A stretch of DNA of 64,000 nt from Alternaria dauci (Eukaryota > Ascomycota > Dothideomycetes > Pleosporales > Pleosporaceae). The stretch spans positions 5,766,001-5,830,000 of the forward strand of contig NC_091272.1 of NCBI RefSeq assembly GCF_042100115.1. The letters are read 5' to 3'. The notes under the pieces were generated by a model that did no database searches, had not been told where the DNA came from, and saw only the letters and a list, made by a program, of their open reading frames with translations. Each line of letters begins with the position of its first letter. Positions within the stretch are counted from its first letter, which is position 1. Both the position numbers and the translations under genes were made by a program. Below, piece after piece: positions 3,745-54,634 of this stretch.

Positions 3745-3853
3745 AACCTCACTTCTACCACTCTTTTCAACGCCGCTTGTAGCTTTGCTAACATTCTGCG
3801 TTCTACAGGCATCCAATTGGTACGGTTCCTCCTTTTCGAACTCTTCTCGAACA

Positions 3854-3940
3854 CTATATGATGATTCCGCACTGGGCACCGACAATTCTTGACGGACATG
3901 CTTATTATGGCAGGCCTCAGAAACCTCGCCGACTGATCTG
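3854..3940 (+). ncRNA. Box C/D snoRNA with a non-yeast guide (predicted 25S TGCCCAGTGC region)
   Basis: C box ATGATGA at 3858-3864 and D box CTGA at 3933-3936 in the intron 3820-3999. The best guide I can see is GCACTGGGCA at 3869-3878, before a D'-like CCGA at 3879-3882, complementary to TGCCCAGTGC in 25S rRNA. The +5 rule would then point to the third C of GCCC, around yeast position 2086, which I do not recall as methylated in yeast. The sequence before the D box did not match any rRNA stretch I could recall. Confidence 0.65.
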
Positions 3941-4063
3941 CTCCGCCATCTTTCACGTTCACACAAGCGTTGCTGAGCTTCGGCTAACAACCCAACCAGT
4001 CTGTTATTTGCAACAGTCTGCGAGATGTCACTTGGTAAGCACATTCCTCTTTCCCAACCCCTG

Positions 4064-4150
4064 CGAAATGATGAACACTTGATGACGAGTCCGACGGGTT
4101 CGCCCGGTGAAGACTTAAATCAAAAATATCCATTCATGTCAACTGATCCA
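4064..4150 (+). ncRNA. Box C/D snoRNA, snR76-like (predicted 25S Cm2197)
   Basis: C box at 4068-4074 and D box at 4143-4146 in the intron 4035-4213. The guide ATCCATTCATG at 4128-4138 is complementary to the 25S stretch CATGAATGGAT; the fifth base before the D box (G4138) pairs with the first C of that stretch, within one base of yeast C2197, the snR76 target. Confidence 0.85.
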
Positions 4151-4268
4151 ACGCTCATGCATACCACTTGCTTGCTGTTTCCTGGTTGAAGTTCTTGCTA
4201 ACTTTCTGCCTAGACTTACTGGTGTTTGTCTCCCTCCATCCGGTACGCTCCGCGCCTTTCTCCTTCTC

Positions 4269-4347
4269 CGAAATGATGATACGACACAATCAAAGACAAG
4301 CATATGTCCAAGCTTCGGCGAAGACGAGAACCGTCATGTCTGATCCA
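4269..4347 (+). ncRNA. Box C/D snoRNA, snR74/U27-like (predicted 18S Am28)
   Basis: C box at 4273-4279 and D box at 4340-4343 in the intron 4243-4406. The guide GACAAGCATATG at 4295-4306 is a perfect 12-nt complement of CATATGCTTGTC near the 18S 5' end. With D' CCAA at 4308-4311 the fifth upstream base (T4303) pairs with A28, exactly the snR74 (human U27) site. Confidence 0.88.
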
Positions 4348-4475
4348 CACACACATCACCTTGTTTCATAAAGACGGTATACAACAGCAACTGATGAGTT
4401 GCACAGGATCGTCTACTACTACTGTAAGCGTGATGACACATTTGGTAAGTCCTCCCTCATCATCTTCACCTCCCC

Positions 4476-44741: not shown

Positions 44742-46682
44742 ATGGGTCAGAGCAACGGCAAGCCCGTCGTCTTCACCGACCAAGGTGCGTCCCCACGCCG
44801 TCGTCCACGGGCCTCGGAGCCGCAAAGGTGGAAGAGATGGAATAACGAACACGGTCACTAACACGCTTGCAGTAAACCTCAACCACTTCCGATTGCTGCG
44901 AGTTGTTGGCAAGGGCGCGTTCGGCAAGGTGCGCATCGTCGAGCGGAAAGACACGGGCCTCACATTTGCGCTCAAGTACATACGGAAAGATGAAGGCATG
45001 TACTCCAGGTGCGACTGCACACTAGCAGGGACCGGTGCTGACGTTGTGCGACAGTGGTACGCTCCGAGAGTGTCCGCAACATCATTCGCGAGCGGCGCAT
45101 GCTCGAGCATCTGAACCACCCCTTCCTCTGCAACCTGCGCTACAGCTTCCAGGACATCGAATATCTGTATGTCTTCCGCCCTGTTGTTCAGCTGCGTGTA
45201 AAGCTGACGAGACCAGATACATTGTGGTTGACCTAATGAACGGCGGCGATCTGCGCTTCCACATCTCGCGGAAGACGTTTACCGAAGAGGCAGTGCGCTT
45301 TTGGATCGCCCAGCTGGGCTGCGCCGTGCGCTACATCCACCAGCAAGGCATTGTGCACAGGGACATCAAGCCAGACAACGTGCTCTTGGATTCCGAGGGC
45401 CACGTCCATCTCGCAGACTTTGTATGCTCGATCCCACCCACGTGCCAGCTGTCACTAACATTCCCAGAACGTCGCCTCCGACTTCACGCCCAACAAGCCG
45501 CTGACGAGCAAGTCTGGCACGCTCGCCTACCTGGCCCCCGAAGTGTACGAAGGCAAGGGATACTCGTGCGAAGTCGACTGGTGGTCCCTGGGTGTGCTCT
45601 TCTACGAATGCATCTACAACAAGCGGCCCTTTGAGGCCAGCAGCCATGACTCGCTCGCCGCCAAGATCTCAAAGGGAGAGCCCACGTATCCCGTCACCAG
45701 CCCGCCCGTGTCCATGCCCTGCCTGCATGCCATCAGCTCGCTGCTCGAGAAGAACCGGAAGAAGCGCATAGGCGCCATTGGTTTCGAGTCGTTTACAGAC
45801 AACCCCTTCTTCCGCCCCCTCGATTTTGTCGCGCTGGAGCGGAAGGAGATCCCGCCCGTCTTTATCCCGTCGAGCGACAAGACCAACTTTGACGCGACCT
45901 ACGATCTGGAAGAGTTGTTGCTTGAGGAGGCACCGCTTGAGGCGAGAGCGCGCAGACAGAAGCCCAGAGAAGCGCTCAAGGACGATGCGACCGAGCAGGA
46001 GATACGGGCCGAGGAGCTGCACCGGATGATCGAGACGTTGTTTGAGCCCTTCAACTACACCACGGCTGCAGACCAACGGCCCCCGGCTGCTGTAGCAGTG
46101 GCAGACCCCCAAGACTCGGTCGGCGGCTCAAGAGCGAGCAATACAAGCCAACCGGACAACGCTCCCGCTTGTCCAACTGGGCAGGTAGATCCGTGGGGGC
46201 GCCCAGTCGCGCCGAACAACAGATCTCAGGATGGCGACCTCCACCCTACCCGCTCGGGTACTACCGCACGATCAACGCAGTCGCCCAACGGCAGCCCTCC
46301 GCTTGCCACCAACATCCTCAACCAAACCGCCAACACCGGCTCACCTACATCGCAGCGTGGTGAGCATGTCGACTATTTCCCCCACGACGGCTCCGAGGTT
46401 CCGACGCCCTCCTTCTCCCGCCCTATGAACAACCGCCAGCGCGGATCGCAGCGCAGCATCAGCACAACCGGCGGCGTACAGGTAGTTCTCAATGAGCATG
46501 GCTCTTGGACTGAGATGGCTAACCAGAGTTCTGCCCTTGTACAGAAAGACGGCCACACTGAGAAACCGTCCGGCATGCTCGGCTTCCTCAGTCGCAAAAA
46601 GGGCCGCGACAGGAGTCCCAAGGCAAAGGAGCGCGGCGTGCTGGGAAAAGAGGGCGCCCGAGTCATCATCAGTAACACTTGA
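44742..46682 (+). CDS. STK32/YANK-type AGC-like serine/threonine kinase
   Basis: Protein kinase of 565 aa. Exons: 44742-44784, 44873-44995, 45055-45166, 45217-45421, 45468-46682. The N-terminus MGQSNGKPVVF resembles the acylated start of animal STK32 (MGANTSRKPPVF) and may be N-myristoylated. The kinase domain shows the P-loop GKGAFGKV, the Lys in FALKYIRKDE, VVDLMNGGDLRFH, the catalytic HRDIKPDNVLL and DFNVA in place of DFG, a substitution shared with STK32. The activation segment ends in GTLAYLAPEVY. A C-terminal AGC-like extension follows (ELLLEEAPLEARARRQK), then a long Ser/Pro-rich tail ending in basic residues. The second intron needs a GC donor (GCATGT at 44996) to keep frame, giving KDEVVRSESVRNII. 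Role in fungi largely unknown. Confidence 0.92.
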
Positions 46683-47248: not shown

Positions 47249-49530
47249 TCACTCTTGAAACTCGCGCTTTTCTACTCTACTACGGCTTCGTTCTTTCCCT
47301 TTGCCTTTGCCTTTGTTGGCCGCCCTCGCTTCGCAGCTTCTGACGTGTCTAGTGAAATTGTCTCTGCGCTTCCATTCCTTGTTCGGCGTTGGACACCCAG
47401 GAACAGTGCACCAGGAACGCTTGAGAGAGCGGAAAAACTCTGCGTGCACGGTGTGCTCGTGGCGCTCTAGATCTGCTCTTACGCCGAACGGCCGTGCGCA
47501 AATGTCGCACACGTAGCGGAGATGGTGTATGCGGTTGTAGTGTTTCCTGGAGAGAGATTGGGTTAGTATGTGTTTTGGTGATGGTAATATTTGAGATGGA
47601 CTGGAGTGGGTGTAGACAAGGTTTGTATCACACACATGGAAGCTGTCTTGCGACATGGGGGAAATACATACTTCTGGCGACCTGCAGTGCTGAACAATTG
47701 CCCGCACGTTTGACATTCAAGATTGTTTTCTGTAGCATTCCGGGAGCTGGCCGGTGATGCTGTTGCGATGGATGGGGTTGTGATGGCTGATTCTGGCGAT
47801 GTAGCATGCGTGGTGTTTGTAGCCGTTGACGCAAAACTCGACTCGGTCTTTGCAGAACCAGGCGTAGACTTGCTTGATTGTGGAGACGACGATTTGGGCA
47901 TCAGCGTGCGTTGTTTGGCACGTCGTTTTTGGCTCGAGCGGTCGTCCTGACTCTTGCTCTGGTCATTGCGCAGTTCAGCTTTTCCGCTGCCGGTTTCCAG
48001 AGGGTGGAGATCGAGGACTGCAACTCTCTTGCGGGGCGCCAGGTTAGAAGCAGGTGGTGGAGAGAAAGCACGACTTGTGCCTGCTAGTCGAGGAGTTGGC
48101 GAGGAGCTAGAGGTTGTGTCTATGTCCATCTTATCGTGCTCATCGGTGGTCTTTGAGTGGTCGGTTTGCCGTTGGATTTCTGGATCCACCTGGTTTCGTG
48201 TGTCTCTCAATGGCCATGCGGTTGCTCCCTGTTCCACGTCGATGGATGTCTTATTGCTGTTCGGCGTTGGCTCTCGAACATGCAGTTCATCGGCATTTGC
48301 GGACGTAGCTATAGAACTCATCTCCATATCCGATGTTCCTGATCTTAGAGGAAGCGGGATGAGACTGCGATCGCACTGCCTATCGGAATCCGGGGGATAC
48401 GGCGTCTGATCCGGGTCCATGTCTGGTCTTTTAGATGGACCAGCACGAGATGGATAGTAAACTGGGTTCAGGTGGAGTTCAACATCAAATGGATTGACAT
48501 AAGCTGGAATAGGCTGTTGGATGCTTAGCACTCCTAGATCGCTAGTGCTTCCAATATTGGCATGAGCAAGAAGCTTATTTGACGGTTGTACTAAAGAAAC
48601 ATCATTAGTGAAAGCTCAAGAACAACCGGGGTCAAAACTCACTTCGCCCAATAGGTGAACTCTCTTGCTCTACGCTCCTACTGTAATCGACAAACTGCTC
48701 TGGGTTGCTATATCTATCCGGTCCTGCAAAGTCGGATTTCTCCGCAGATGCGAGCTCTTGTGGCTGCCGTAACAATGCTGCATATCTTGAAAATGTAGCA
48801 GTGGCGCCGGCTTCGACTGGAACCAGATCACCATCTAGCTCTGATGTTATTCTTGGCTCGGTCCGTTCGTATCTGTGCTTCTGTTGACTACATGTCGTGT
48901 CAAGCTCCGAAGGCTTCTCCACATCACCTGCACTCCGTTTTCTTCCCGACCTCCTCTTTCTCCAGAAGAAGAAACATCCTGCCCCAATCAAGACAACAAA
49001 GCATACAATTGAGACACTGATACCAATCAAGACAGCGGGGCTGTCGGTCGCAGATGAGGCTCGTTTGTTACGCGAAGGCGCAGTATGCAACATTGTGGAG
49101 CGGACAGCGAAGGCAATGGGGGCCATCTTGACTGTAAGGGTACCTATGGTAGTAATGGAAAGTTATTTCGGGTCAGCAGAAAGCAAGAGATGCTATAATT
49201 ATGGGATTAACGGGCAACAGCGAGGCTGAGTGAGGCACACTCATGTGCTGGAGCGGAGCCAATCACACGTGCAGATGGCGTCACCTCGAGGGACTCTATC
49301 TTGTGCATCATGCGAATGCACTCTTCCCTCATAGTATCAGGAAGCAGACTCTGTATACGCTCGCTGATTGGCACAAAGCAAGAGATACCGTACATCCGCG
49401 TCGCCGCTGTGAAAAGTCGTCCTATCATATAGTTCCAGAGACACACAACTTTTCCGTACAGTCCTGCGAAGGGCAACCCACCGATGCACGTATGCTTCGA
49501 CCGGGCTATCGTAAAGTACCGAGTCACCAT
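47249..49530 (-). CDS. Predicted membrane-anchored C2H2 zinc-finger protein, copy 1 (678 aa)
   Basis: Four exons, 49530-49212, 49143-48643, 48590-47672 and 47546-47249, all phase-compatible, give 678 aa. One transmembrane helix lies at about residues 143-167 (LIGISVSIVCFVVLIGAGCF), followed by WRKRRSGRKR, so the long C-terminal part should face the cytosol. After a Ser/Thr/Pro-rich linker with basic clusters come three zinc fingers at about 566-665: CQTC...HYNRIH, CDIC...HEHTVH and a CxxxxC...HVRSC finger, then a Lys/Arg-rich tail. The exon joining membrane and finger parts has a good GTGAGT donor, CACTAAT branch and TTTAG acceptor. The first exon (residues 1-106) is the least certain: no signal peptide is visible and only 38 bases separate it from the stop of the upstream gene. 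A later start at 49126 would keep the membrane helix. Likely a tethered transcription factor. Confidence 0.7.
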
Positions 49531-49568
49531 TGGTTCGAGTGAGAGTCCTCCAAAACACCCGGTCTGCC

Positions 49569-52007
49569 TCACATTGCCACATCTCGATCATGTTCCCACG
49601 CTTGACTCGGCTGTTTCCAGTGTCTGTTGTCCCCCTCATGCTTTTTCATGCTTGCATCATGTTCTGAATTGGCTTTCGCGACAGCCCTCTTGCAACGCTC
49701 TACATGTCTCGTGAAGTTATCTTTCCGGGCATACACCTTTCCCGGGGCCATGCAGCCGACATTTGTGCACTGAAACAAGTTCTGAGAAGGGATCTGCATA
49801 TCATCTCGATGAACGCTGTTTTCATGACGTCGAAGGTCGGTGCAGAGCCCAAACTTTGCTTTACAGATTTCGCAAACGTACCGTAGATCGTGTTTACGAT
49901 TCTGGTGATTTCTGAAAGAATATATGATTAGTACAACACGCAAAGGATAAACACGGCCTATCGCCAAGGAGAACATACCTCCTGAGACCTGGGGTTCGGA
50001 AACCTAAATGGCAGACAGGGCACGAGTACAACAAACTTGTATTTGCTTCTGTCGATGTTGAGAGAGAGTTTGGAGTTTGTGCTTTCCCTGAAGCACGTGT
50101 TGACGATGAGTGTGAAAATACACGTGAAGTAAGTGGAACCAGATTGCCTTTTGCCCGTTCAGAACCGCTCGGTGACCAAATGACCAGATCATCGGAGCAT
50201 GTGTCTCTCGAAGACTGCTCTGTTGGTAGATCTGCGTCGTACTTGATACGCTTGTAGGCGCTAGGCTCGTTTGCGCGGCGACCATTGTCTTTAGATGGTA
50301 ACAATACTACCAGTGTTGTTGTAATGGACGAGACATCCTTCACTGCAAGATCTAATTCATCAGATCTCAAAGCATGTATTGCAGGCTGCGAAGACTCCGA
50401 ATCTCCAAATTGTAGCGCTGGTGAGACGCCTCCATGATCGAATGTCACCAAAGGTGCCTCCATGGTCGAAGTGCTTTCCAAGTCATTCATTTGTGACCCA
50501 TAAAGCTCAATGGGGTTTTTGAGGCTTGTAGACCCCAAGGTAGGTGCAGTAGAACATGGGTAGTTCCTTGAACCCCGTTCTGGTTCAGCTCCAGATATGC
50601 TTGATAAGTGAGGGAAAATGACTGGATTAGGCTGGTACTCCAAGTTCCAAGGGTTGATGGTAGTGGTACTCTCAGCCTTTCTCAGTGAACTTTCGCCAGG
50701 TGTACTTGCTGAATGAGTGAAACCGTGCTGGAAGCCTGTCGTCTGCTGGTTGTTGCCAAAGTCGGCACACGAAGTGCGTGGTTGGCCTCCAAGAACTGAA
50801 CGCGAGGCTATCCGATCTCCCTTGCTACTGATTCTGTATTCTTCAGGTCCATAAATGACTGTGTCAGTTTTGATACATTCGGAAGGTATTGGACTCATGG
50901 TTTCCCTAGATGTGGATGACTGAGACAATCCTATCGTAGGTCGTCTTTCATTCCTTCGTGCTGGATATACCTCGCCCCTCGCAGCAGCCTCTTGCGCCTT
51001 ACGTTGTGACTCCAGCTTTCCTGGTCTTCCACGTTTCTTTTTAATCACCGGCGTAATGGATGAAGCTATCGTGGGTGTATAGATTGGACCAGCAGACAGA
51101 AACTCGTCTGGACTCGAATGATGCTGGTAGATTGCAAATGGGCTTTTGTTGTCGTTATCCCAATAGGCACCGGGAGATCCATGCCAGCATGGTTCTTCTT
51201 CGTGGTATGAAGCACGCGGATCTAGGGCAGATTCGACATCATCGAACAGTTCTTTCTGTAGGCCCCAAGCGGAAAAACCCTTAGCATCTTGGAAGCGCCT
51301 CTTCTGGGCAGGTAAAATACACGCTGGAGTCGTTTTCGCATCTGATCTTTGTCCTGTATCGTAATCAGCTTTAGAATCATTATAGTTCCCATGGCATTAC
51401 CATCGTATGTAGGTACAGTGTTCAGAAAAGAAGTATCTTCGATCCCTTGGATTCGCTTTGTATCTGCTATTGTCTTTTCCAATTCCCCAAGAGAATCCGC
51501 ACGCTGCTGGAGCGAAGATATGCTATCCGATGGTGCCTCCCAACATGGTATCGGTTCGGAGGCGTTTTTCTTATCGTCAGGCACTATTCGTTTGTCGATC
51601 ATCCCATCTCTGAGCGTTTGTGTTCGACCAGTTCCAGGTCTCAACGCAGAAGATGTCGCGATACGTAGATCCACCTGGCTCCCTGGATGAACAATTTCAG
51701 GGTAAGCCTCTTCCCCATAGTGACCCTCTTTGGGGTAGTGAGCTTCACCTAAGAACTCTGGCGATAGAAGCTGCCACTTTTGAACCGCGTTATGATCATT
51801 CTCTATATCCTGTAACTTGACAACCTGTCTCAAGGATCTTGACTTGCCTGTATAGGAGAAGAGAGAGAGGAGGAGGATGAAAAGGAGTAGACCGGAGACG
51901 GATCCTAGGACTAGTCCCGCGATTACCCCATCATTGAGACCATTACCAGTAGTAGAGCGTGACGCCAGAGGTTCAAAAGAACCAGTGGCCGTGTATACGA
52001 CTGCCAT
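49569..52007 (-). CDS. Predicted membrane-anchored C2H2 zinc-finger protein with AT-hook, copy 2 (774 aa)
   Basis: Three exons, 52007-51401, 51353-49979 and 49911-49569, give 774 aa. A transmembrane helix at about residues 27-52 (GVIAGLVLGSVSGLLLFILL) is followed by YTGKSRSLRQ, placing the rest in the cytosol. A Ser/Asp-rich region leads to an AT-hook-like KKKRGRPGK near residue 305, a long Ser/Thr/Pro linker, and three fingers at about 646-745: CPVC...HQNRKH, CEIC...HENSVH, and a CxxxxC...HVERC finger. The second intron lies at the same codon and phase inside finger 1 as in the downstream copy, showing the two are paralogues. The first intron is 47 nt (GTAATG ... GATACAG). Upstream frames with paired Cys (52010-52480) may hold a missed external domain. 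Confidence 0.72.
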
Positions 52008-52910: not shown

Positions 52911-54634
52911 CTAATGAGGCTTGATGTTGGACCTGGCCAGCCACAGGGCCACGCTCTCCTTGGCAACCTCGCTGCCCCATACACCGTCCGCTCCTCCCCG
53001 TCGCCATTCTTCGCCAGATATGTCTTCTCCACCACCTCGTGTGGCCTCGCCAAGCAGCACCTCCAGGTCGCGCTTCTGGCTAGACAGCCAGCGCTTGAAG
53101 AAGGTCACGGGGTCCTTGGACATGCTGGTGAAGAAGGCGTGCTTTGCCTTTGATTGGCCAATCGCCCCCATCAGCAGTACGAGCTGCTCGTCGATCTTCT
53201 GAATCTCTTGGAGGGTCTGTATGCTGTCTGGCCGGCGTAGGATATCTTGGAAGAGTGGCTGCATCGGGTCTTCGAGTGCGACCTGGACGTCGTATACGGT
53301 CGGTTCGGAAGGGGTCTTGCCCGAATCGGCAGCGGGTGAGATGTAGTCTTTGTCTACGCGAATGGTGTACTGGAGCTGAATAGGTGGGAGGGTCGTGAGA
53401 TGTTGTTTGATGAGCTGAGGCAGGTTCGGGAAGAAGAAATGGTCTTGGCCACCGAAGAGAGCCTTCAGCCTGGCGTCGCATGCAAACTTGCGCTCATCGT
53501 CTTCTTGCTGTAGGTGTTGTGACCTCGCGTATTCCCAGATGCCCATGAGCACACCAGCGCGGTCCTCCTCGTCGGTGTCGAGCAACTCGGCGAGGGGTTT
53601 GCTCAGGCGGAAGACCTCGGGGTTTTGGTAGCGCTGCAGGTTGATGGTGATGTTGATGTTCTCGTCGCCCTTGCGCTCGAATTCGAGTTCGCTGAAGTTG
53701 GCCTCCTTGGCAGTAGGATTCTCGGGTCGCTTCCACTCGATTTGCGTAAAGTTGTCGGGCTGTAAGCTCTTGGCGCGGTCGAAGTCGATGTTGATGGATG
53801 TAAAGTAGTGCGAGAACAGCTTCGGTTTCGCGGCTGGCTTTTTCTCCGCTCCGTCTTCGTCCCTGGTACTGGTTAGTGTTCGTACTGAGATGTGTATGCG
53901 ATTGGCAAGCTCTCGAACTAGCGCTACCGCGATAGAAAAGTTGAGCAGACATACATCGCATCGCCGTCCTTGTCATCGTCGTCATCCTCCTCGAGACCCT
54001 CGTCGCCCTCTTCGTCGAGCAGGCGCCCTTGGATCTTGACACGGTACGTCGCGTTGTTCTCGCTCTCAAAGTCAAACGCATCCGCGTCGATGCCGCTGCT
54101 CTGCCAGGGCTGGTTCTCGGCGGTGTTGGATATCCATATGCGCATGGTGCCGTAGCGCGATGCGCGCGAATGGTGCTTCGAGTCCATGACGTCCAGCTTC
54201 TTGCGCATCATAGTTGCGTCCAGCGTGCGCTCGACCTCGCGCAATTCCTTGTAGCGCGCGACGGCGTCGCCAATGCACACGTCCTCGACGCCCTCGGGGA
54301 TGTTCTTGTCGGTCGGGTTTTTTGCGATTCGGCGCATCTTCTCGCGGCGCTCGGCTTCGGCACGCTGCGACGCCTGCATGTTGGCCGTGTTGTACTGCGG
54401 TTGCGTAGCCGGGTGCGGCGGATGGACAATGGGGCCTGGGTTGCGGAACAAGTGAGCGAGGTCGTTCCTACTAATCATCGTCTTTTACGGAGAGTATGCG
54501 CAGGCGGTCGGTGCAGGCGGACGTGTCGTGGGCGCTGTGGTTGACAATTGGGACTTACCTGGTCGTCGGGAAGGCGTAGCTGCATTGTGCTGTTGCGGAT
54601 AATTATATCCCCGTGCCTGATAGTTCGGCTGCAT
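52911..54634 (-). CDS. SWI/SNF subunit Snf12/SMARCD-like (SWIB domain)
   Basis: Chromatin-remodelling subunit of 502 aa. Exons 54634-54559, 54435-53955 and 53862-52911. The start MQPNYQARGYNYPQQHN is Gln/Asn/Tyr-rich; after the first intron (123 nt) the chain continues RRPGPIVHPPH. Residues 60-180 have the Snf12-type region NPTDKNIPEGVEDVCIGDAVARYKEL followed by an Asp/Glu-rich loop. The SWIB domain sits near residues 275-350 (NPEVFRLSKPLAELLDTDEED, GIWEYARSQHLQQEDDERKF). The C-terminal helices (IQKIDEQLVLLMGAIGQSKAKHAFF, then FFKRWLSSQKRDLEVLLGE) match the SMARCD tail. A frame in the first intron is open for some codons, but the join using its GTAAGT donor and the CCCAG acceptor restores the family sequence. 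Could be Snf12 or the RSC paralogue Rsc6. Confidence 0.92.

What the first reader, a model, noticed from the sequence alone, without database searches (positions are those of the whole stretch)
47249..52007. Tandem paralogues predicted to tether C2H2 zinc fingers to a membrane
Two adjacent minus-strand genes both join one transmembrane helix, followed by a positively charged stop-transfer segment, to a long Ser/Thr/Pro linker and three C-terminal zinc fingers. The finger-1 intron sits at the same codon and phase in both, so they arose by duplication, yet the membrane halves have diverged strongly. The design is that of a membrane-tethered transcription factor that could be released by cleavage, like SREBP or animal Notch-type systems. 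I know of no described fungal family with this layout. Divergent sensors with a conserved DNA-binding part would fit a pair responding to different signals.
Basis: partly seen in the sequence, partly recalled or inferred. Interest (0 to 1): 0.8.

Follow-up and report, generated by a model that had tools for sequence, protein, structure and literature searches.

The report
Membrane-anchored fungal zinc-finger gene family
Two neighbouring fungal genes, and a third elsewhere in the same genome, each encode a predicted DNA-binding zinc-finger protein tied to a membrane by one helix near its start, a layout that may belong to a gene regulator held at a membrane until it is needed.

Summary
Gene A (52007-49569) and gene B (49126-47249) each splice into one open frame: short N-terminal tail, one strong transmembrane (TM) helix, basic segment, long linker, three C-terminal zinc fingers; both introns agree in phase. 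It is more than a pair. A third paralogue, C, on another contig has the same layout and intron phases, and C-type proteins occur in Alternaria, Bipolaris, Exserohilum and, with the TM cut by annotation, Decorospora. Of 26 database relatives, 15 have a TM and 4 carry TM plus all three fingers, so 'four separate genes' is very unlikely. A, B and C share an undescribed 15-residue motif ending NPV-I/Y-F/Y-P.

The mechanism is not shown. Best reading: membrane-tethered transcription factors, tail outside and fingers inside, freed by ubiquitin/Cdc48-type extraction or intramembrane cleavage. SREBP and Notch are poor models: site-2 protease was not found, and the layout differs. 'Divergent sensors' is weak because the outside tails are only about 27-46 residues. 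Main rival: a permanent inner-nuclear-membrane anchor like Bqt4. Eight literature searches found no such family. New variant of a known kind.

The parts
51401..52007 (-). Gene A exon 1: N-tail, TM helix, basic segment, juxtamembrane stretch with RIQGIEDTSFL motif
   Evidence: open frame, phase-1 donor at 51400
51858..51926 (-). Gene A TM helix, residues 28-50
   Evidence: Kyte-Doolittle 2.63 over residues 28-46
51354..51400 (-). Gene A intron 1 (47 nt, phase 1)
   Evidence: GT...AG; removal restores the frame
49979..51353 (-). Gene A exon 2: linker, NPVIFP motif, first half of finger 1
   Evidence: open frame
50611..50655 (-). Gene A family motif NPWNLEYQPNPVIFP, residues 436-450
   Evidence: related motif in B and C
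49912..49978 (-). Gene A finger-1 intron (phase 2)
49569..49911 (-). Gene A exon 3: rest of finger 1, fingers 2 and 3, tail
   Evidence: zf-C2H2 in Pfam scan
49692..50022 (-). Gene A finger trio (spans the intron)
   Evidence: residues 647-734
48643..49126 (-). Gene B exon 1: N-tail, TM helix, strongly basic segment
48968..49036 (-). Gene B TM helix, residues 31-53
   Evidence: Kyte-Doolittle 2.79 over residues 31-49; 7 K/R and 0 D/E in the next 15
48591..48642 (-). Gene B intron 1 (52 nt, phase 1)
47672..48590 (-). Gene B exon 2: family motif, Ser/Thr/Pro linker, first half of finger 1
48451..48495 (-). Gene B family motif NPFDVELHLNPVYYP, residues 194-208
47547..47671 (-). Gene B finger-1 intron (phase 2)
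47249..47546 (-). Gene B exon 3: rest of finger 1, fingers 2 and 3, tail
47333..47715 (-). Gene B finger trio (spans the intron)
   Evidence: residues 454-539

Best explanation
A and B, with paralogue C, are membrane-tethered C2H2 transcription factors. Shown by sequence: one polypeptide with a short N-tail, one TM helix, a basic flank, a kept juxtamembrane segment, the NPVIFP-like motif, a long linker and three fingers. Inferred from the positive-inside rule (recalled): tail outside or in the lumen, fingers on the cytosol/nucleus side. Inferred: the protein sits dormant in a membrane, probably of the ER or nuclear envelope, and on a signal the finger part is freed and binds DNA. The most likely route is ubiquitin-dependent extraction or clipping through a Rsp5-type ligase and Cdc48/proteasome (the C lineage keeps a PPPY Rsp5-type docking motif about 30 residues past the TM), with rhomboid cleavage as the second route.
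For: Four database proteins carry TM plus full trio (P0001, P0015, P0018, P0025) and eight more run from TM to the first half of finger 1, out of 26. In C against Bipolaris P0018, TM 14 of 23, stop-transfer 11 of 15, LGID segment 17 of 21, family motif 18 of 20 and fingers 64 of 87 are identical, linker only 31 of 93. PPxY in 9 of 10 C-type rows and 2 of 6 B-type rows. The genome holds three WW domains next to HECT pieces at C3:1093191-1095071, four rhomboid matches and one SPP-type match. Known precedents in fungi: Mga2/Spt23 through Rsp5 and Cdc48 (passages of PMC8393694), SREBP through RbdB, SppA and Dsc (passages of PMC4863583).
Against: No localisation, cleavage, transcript or DNA-binding data. 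The window's own A and B have neither PPxY nor LPxY, nor do P0005, P0011 and P0025 near the TM; one protein has a 3-10% chance of a PPxY when shuffled. Mga2/Spt23 are anchored at the other end (recalled). Eleven of 26 relatives show no TM; most of these read as exon fragments, but P0004 (A. panax), P0024 (Lophiotrema) and P0026 may be true TM-less forms. Four annotated C orthologues (P0016, P0017, P0019, P0023) stop at the finger-1 intron and P0020 leaves the finger frame, which could be an isoform without fingers rather than an annotation error.
Confidence: 0.5

Rival explanations
1. Permanent anchor. The proteins stay in the inner nuclear membrane and bind DNA there without release, tying loci to the nuclear edge, as Bqt4 does with a KilA-N domain and a TM helix.
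For: Predicted finger side is the cytosol/nucleoplasm; no release step is needed. Bqt4, MtgA and FspTF give a fungal precedent for a DNA-binding-type domain plus one TM helix in the inner nuclear membrane (passages of PMC10375492).
Against: Long disordered linker, kept juxtamembrane segment and PPPY in the C lineage suggest regulation; no nuclear-envelope targeting was tested.
Confidence: 0.25
2. Two forms from one gene. A promoter or start inside or after intron 1 gives a soluble factor, and the full transcript gives a membrane form, so the membrane form is a decoy or store and no protease is needed.
For: Intron 1 lies between the membrane exon and the rest in A, B and C, all phase 1. The NCBI model P0004 and the metagenome ORF P0007 start at an ATG that looks to lie in intron 1, and P0003, P0011-P0014 seem to read through intron 1 in frame (by eye on proteins; their DNA was not seen). 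Paralogues D, E, F have motif and fingers without a found TM.
Against: In the window intron 1 of A (47 nt) and B (52 nt) is not a multiple of three, so retention breaks the frame; P0004 may be a faulty gene model.
Confidence: 0.15
3. Membrane proteins whose fingers do not bind DNA (for instance protein- or RNA-binding fingers of a plasma-membrane or mitochondrial protein; the B tail looks basic and lacks acids, a little like a mitochondrial presequence).
For: C2H2 fingers can bind other partners; the B-lineage tail is well conserved (26 of 30 against P0001).
Against: Three canonical linked fingers, best PDB matches are DNA-binding trains (ZNF568, CTCF); basic clusters such as KKKRGRPGK in A.
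Confidence: 0.07
4. Gene-model artefact: separate membrane genes and finger genes placed next to each other by chance.
For: Some database models lack one half.
Against: Same join in three paralogues and in named relatives; one predicted protein holds both halves in P0001, P0015, P0018 and P0025.
Confidence: 0.03

Closest known systems
Mga2 / Spt23 (yeast OLE pathway)
   Same: Fungal membrane-held transcription factors freed with Rsp5 and Cdc48; PPxY docking possible in the C lineage
   Different: No IPT/TIG or ankyrin match here; anchor near the N-terminus, not the C-terminus (position in Mga2/Spt23 recalled)
SREBP (Sre1/SrbA)
   Same: Membrane-held fungal factor; rhomboid and SPP present in this genome
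   Different: bHLH factor with a TM hairpin (recalled); here C2H2 fingers and one TM; no bHLH match
Bqt4 / MtgA / FspTF (KilA-N)
   Same: DNA-binding-type domain and one TM helix in one fungal protein
   Different: KilA-N fold and C-terminal TM; no KilA-N match here
Notch
   Same: N-out, C-in topology with a nuclear C-terminal part as a formal analogy
   Different: Large ectodomain, RBPJ co-factor logic and presenilin (recalled); here tails of about 27-46 residues and own fingers

Membership tests
C2H2 zinc-finger proteins | zf-C2H2 repeats above Pfam's cut-off | tested here: met
   A 28.9 and B 25.7 bits against a cut-off of 25.2; P0015 37.1, P0018 41.2
C2H2 zinc-finger proteins | sequence-specific DNA binding | not testable with these tools
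   only sequence resemblance to DNA-binding finger trains
Membrane-tethered transcription factors | TM helix and DNA-binding domain in one polypeptide | tested here: met
   A, B, C; P0001, P0015, P0018, P0025
Membrane-tethered transcription factors | regulated release to the nucleus | not testable with these tools
   needs tagging and blots
SREBP | bHLH domain | tested here: not met
   no such match for A and B or seven relatives
SREBP | two TM helices as a hairpin | tested here: not met
   second-best hydrophobic segment 1.45 in A, 0.95 in B
Mga2/Spt23 | IPT/TIG and ankyrin repeats, C-terminal TM | tested here: not met
   no Pfam match; TM at residues 28-50 and 31-53
Mga2/Spt23 | Rsp5 docking motif | tested here: inconclusive
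   PPxY in 9 of 10 C-type and 2 of 6 B-type rows, 0 of 3 A-type rows; none in the window's A and B
Bqt4/KilA-N | KilA-N domain | tested here: not met
   no match
Notch | large repeat ectodomain | tested here: not met
   tail of about 27-30 residues in A and B

The most novel reading that the evidence does not exclude
A previously undescribed family of fungal transcription factors anchored at the N-terminus, tail out and C2H2 fingers in, defined by TM + LGID segment + NPVIFP motif + finger trio, in which release by a Rsp5/Cdc48 or rhomboid route turns on genes. It would reverse the usual polarity of fungal tethered factors (anchor at the C-terminal side), and TM-less relatives D, E, F would be its always-free counterparts.
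Probability: 0.35. Interest if true: 0.75.

Novelty: new variant of a known kind. Interest (0 to 1): 0.55.

Why it matters
Few fungal transcription factors are known to be held in membranes (SREBP, Mga2/Spt23; general knowledge). A conserved family with a different DNA-binding domain and the opposite anchor end would give a new, simple signalling layout that can be tested directly with tags at both ends, and would warn annotators who drop the TM exon or stop at the finger-1 intron.

Tried and rejected
Rejected: four separate genes (one predicted protein holds both halves in four relatives). Rejected: secreted protein with a cleaved signal peptide (hydrophobic core starts at residue 28 or later and is followed by basic residues; rule recalled). 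Rejected as support: my first reading, in a notebook entry, that P0011-P0014 are intron-free proofs of the join; they more likely read through an in-frame intron 1, so they show an open frame, not a transcript. The 385-aa model of C was corrected to 383 aa by moving the intron-1 acceptor 6 nt, because the relatives read QSEGS there; searches used the 385-aa model. Not found: an N-terminal exon for D, E or F (zero candidates under simple rules). Little gained: NCBIfam and the AlphaFold model of P0018 beyond one long helix and three finger folds (mean pLDDT 55.4). The finger tree groups A with P0025 and the B rows at 86/90 and D, E, F at 98/98, but it warns of long branches, so it is weak. Presenilin absence is not claimed (no control rang). 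Orthologue synteny of the pair could not be looked at: metagenome scans were capped at 0, genome contigs holds prokaryotes only, and G000 has no relatives here.

Full report
Setting. The window is G000:C1:5766001-5830000 of a 34.9-Mb fungal assembly in 10 contigs. The nearest named relatives of the genes are Alternaria proteins, so an Alternaria species is likely (inference). A and B lie on the minus strand beside a SWIB-domain gene (52911-53972) and a protein-kinase gene (45459-46682).

Gene models. Removing 51354-51400 and 49912-49978 from A, and 48591-48642 and 47547-47671 from B, gives 774 and 566 residues without stops. Intron 1 is phase 1 and the finger-1 intron phase 2 in both. All four introns begin GT and end AG.

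Anatomy. A: TM 28-50, motif RIQGIEDTSFL near 185, motif NPWNLEYQPNPVIFP at 436, fingers 647-734. B: TM 31-53, motif NPFDVELHLNPVYYP at 194, fingers 454-539. Each has one clear TM; the next hydrophobic peak is far lower. Pfam finds only zinc-finger families above cut-off.

A third member. Searching the own genome with the B fingers gave 13 places at E up to 1 (one of them, and part of another, is B itself). The best outside the pair, C4:2310757, belongs to gene C (locus L022, exons 1718-2159, 2214-2691, 2757-2988 after correction; 383 aa), with TM at 47-65, basic flank, ITADQILGIDKRSYLQRIVPQ, SPWDAEHTPNPVIFP and three fingers, and the same two intron phases. So the layout predates the tandem pair. 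Three more own-genome genes, D (L023), E (L026) and F (L033), share the motif (SPYTFEHEVNPVIHRP, SPFAFEKDLNPVIHAP, SPYEVEYDINPIIHAP) and fingers, but I found no TM and no start codon for them.

Relatives. Three protein searches gave 13, 1 and 12 proteins. The first two scored only the candidates that shared most words (7995 and 7993), so they are not complete. Of these 26, 15 have a TM by hydropathy of 2 or more; 4 have TM and full trio: P0001 (A. alternata, 509 aa, 67% over 98% of B), P0015 (A. atra, 383 aa, 78% over 100% of C), P0018 (Bipolaris maydis, 384 aa, 59% over 92% of C) and P0025 (unnamed, 660 aa). Eight run from the TM to the first half of finger 1 and end at or near the finger-1 intron (P0005, P0011-P0014, P0016, P0017, P0019); three have a TM but no finger (P0020-P0022); eleven show no TM, among them P0023, whose model begins inside the TM, P0004 from A. 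panax, and P0024 from Lophiotrema, which has the motif and trio with a best hydropathy of only 0.94. P0001 lacks the family motif in its annotated splice form. These are predicted proteins; I saw no transcript data.

Conservation. C against Bipolaris P0018: tail 11 of 42 aligned residues, TM 14 of 23, stop-transfer 11 of 15, juxtamembrane 24 of 41, LGID segment 17 of 21, family motif 18 of 20, linker 31 of 93, fingers 64 of 87. TM and cytosolic elements are thus kept better than linker and tail. In B against P0001 the tail is 26 of 30 and the fingers 86 of 89. A against P0014: tail 14 of 27, TM 10 of 23. A against P0025: TM 3 of 23, fingers 53 of 91. Pairwise global alignment is unreliable in the long linkers; for example it does not line up the shared motif of A and B (2 of 21).

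Mechanism. Positive-inside reading puts the fingers on the cytosol/nucleus side. Site-2 protease was not found while 14 of 14 controls rang; four rhomboid matches and one SPP-type match are present, which agrees with what PMC4863583 says of Aspergillus (passages). The presenilin result is empty of meaning. C-type proteins keep PPPY just past the basic flank in 9 of 10 rows (C and P0015-P0022; P0021 and P0022 are near-duplicates of P0015 and P0019), B-type PPxY in 2 of 6, and the window's A and B have none; LPxY occurs in P0001, P0014 and, far from the TM, P0025. WW domains and HECT pieces lie together at C3:1093191-1095071. This makes Rsp5-type handling the first guess for C and a weaker guess for A and B. 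The AlphaFold model of P0018 shows one helix at 39-74 and three finger folds; the rest is low confidence.

Known families. No published family with this layout was found in eight library searches; two more looked for the SREBP and Mga2 machinery. The library holds open-licence papers only. SREBP, Mga2/Spt23 and Bqt4 fail on their defining domains. The proteins may work like a tethered factor without being members of those families.

Verdict. Interest 0.55.

Noticed in passing
L023 (about 3330-2680, minus), L026 (about 3780-4430, plus), L033 (about 4326-3430, minus): Three further own-genome genes (D, E, F) share the family motif and three fingers, but no in-frame ATG was found between a TATA-like upstream site (seen by eye) and the conserved motif; their N-termini are unsolved.
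   Followed up: partly
G000:C1:388224-394655: E and F lie about 6 kb apart on opposite strands, a second pair of this finger family on the same contig.
   Followed up: no
C-type relatives P0016, P0017, P0019, P0023: Annotated models end with a lysine at the finger-1 intron, so fingers 2-3 are missing in the database; either an annotation error or a finger-less isoform.
   Followed up: partly
P0003, P0011-P0014: Intron 1 seems to be an in-frame, stop-free stretch in these relatives (by eye), so its retention would not break the protein.
   Followed up: no
window:50990-51043 (minus): Gene A carries KKKRGRPGKLESQ in its linker, an AT-hook-like or nuclear-import-like basic motif (motif recalled), kept as KMKRGRPTKAESQ in P0014.
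   Followed up: no
window:47750-47900 (minus): The stretch before finger 1 in gene B (SSPQSSKSTPGSAKTESSFASTATN...SAITTPS) is well kept among B relatives and rich in Ser/Thr-Pro, a possible phosphorylation region.
   Followed up: no
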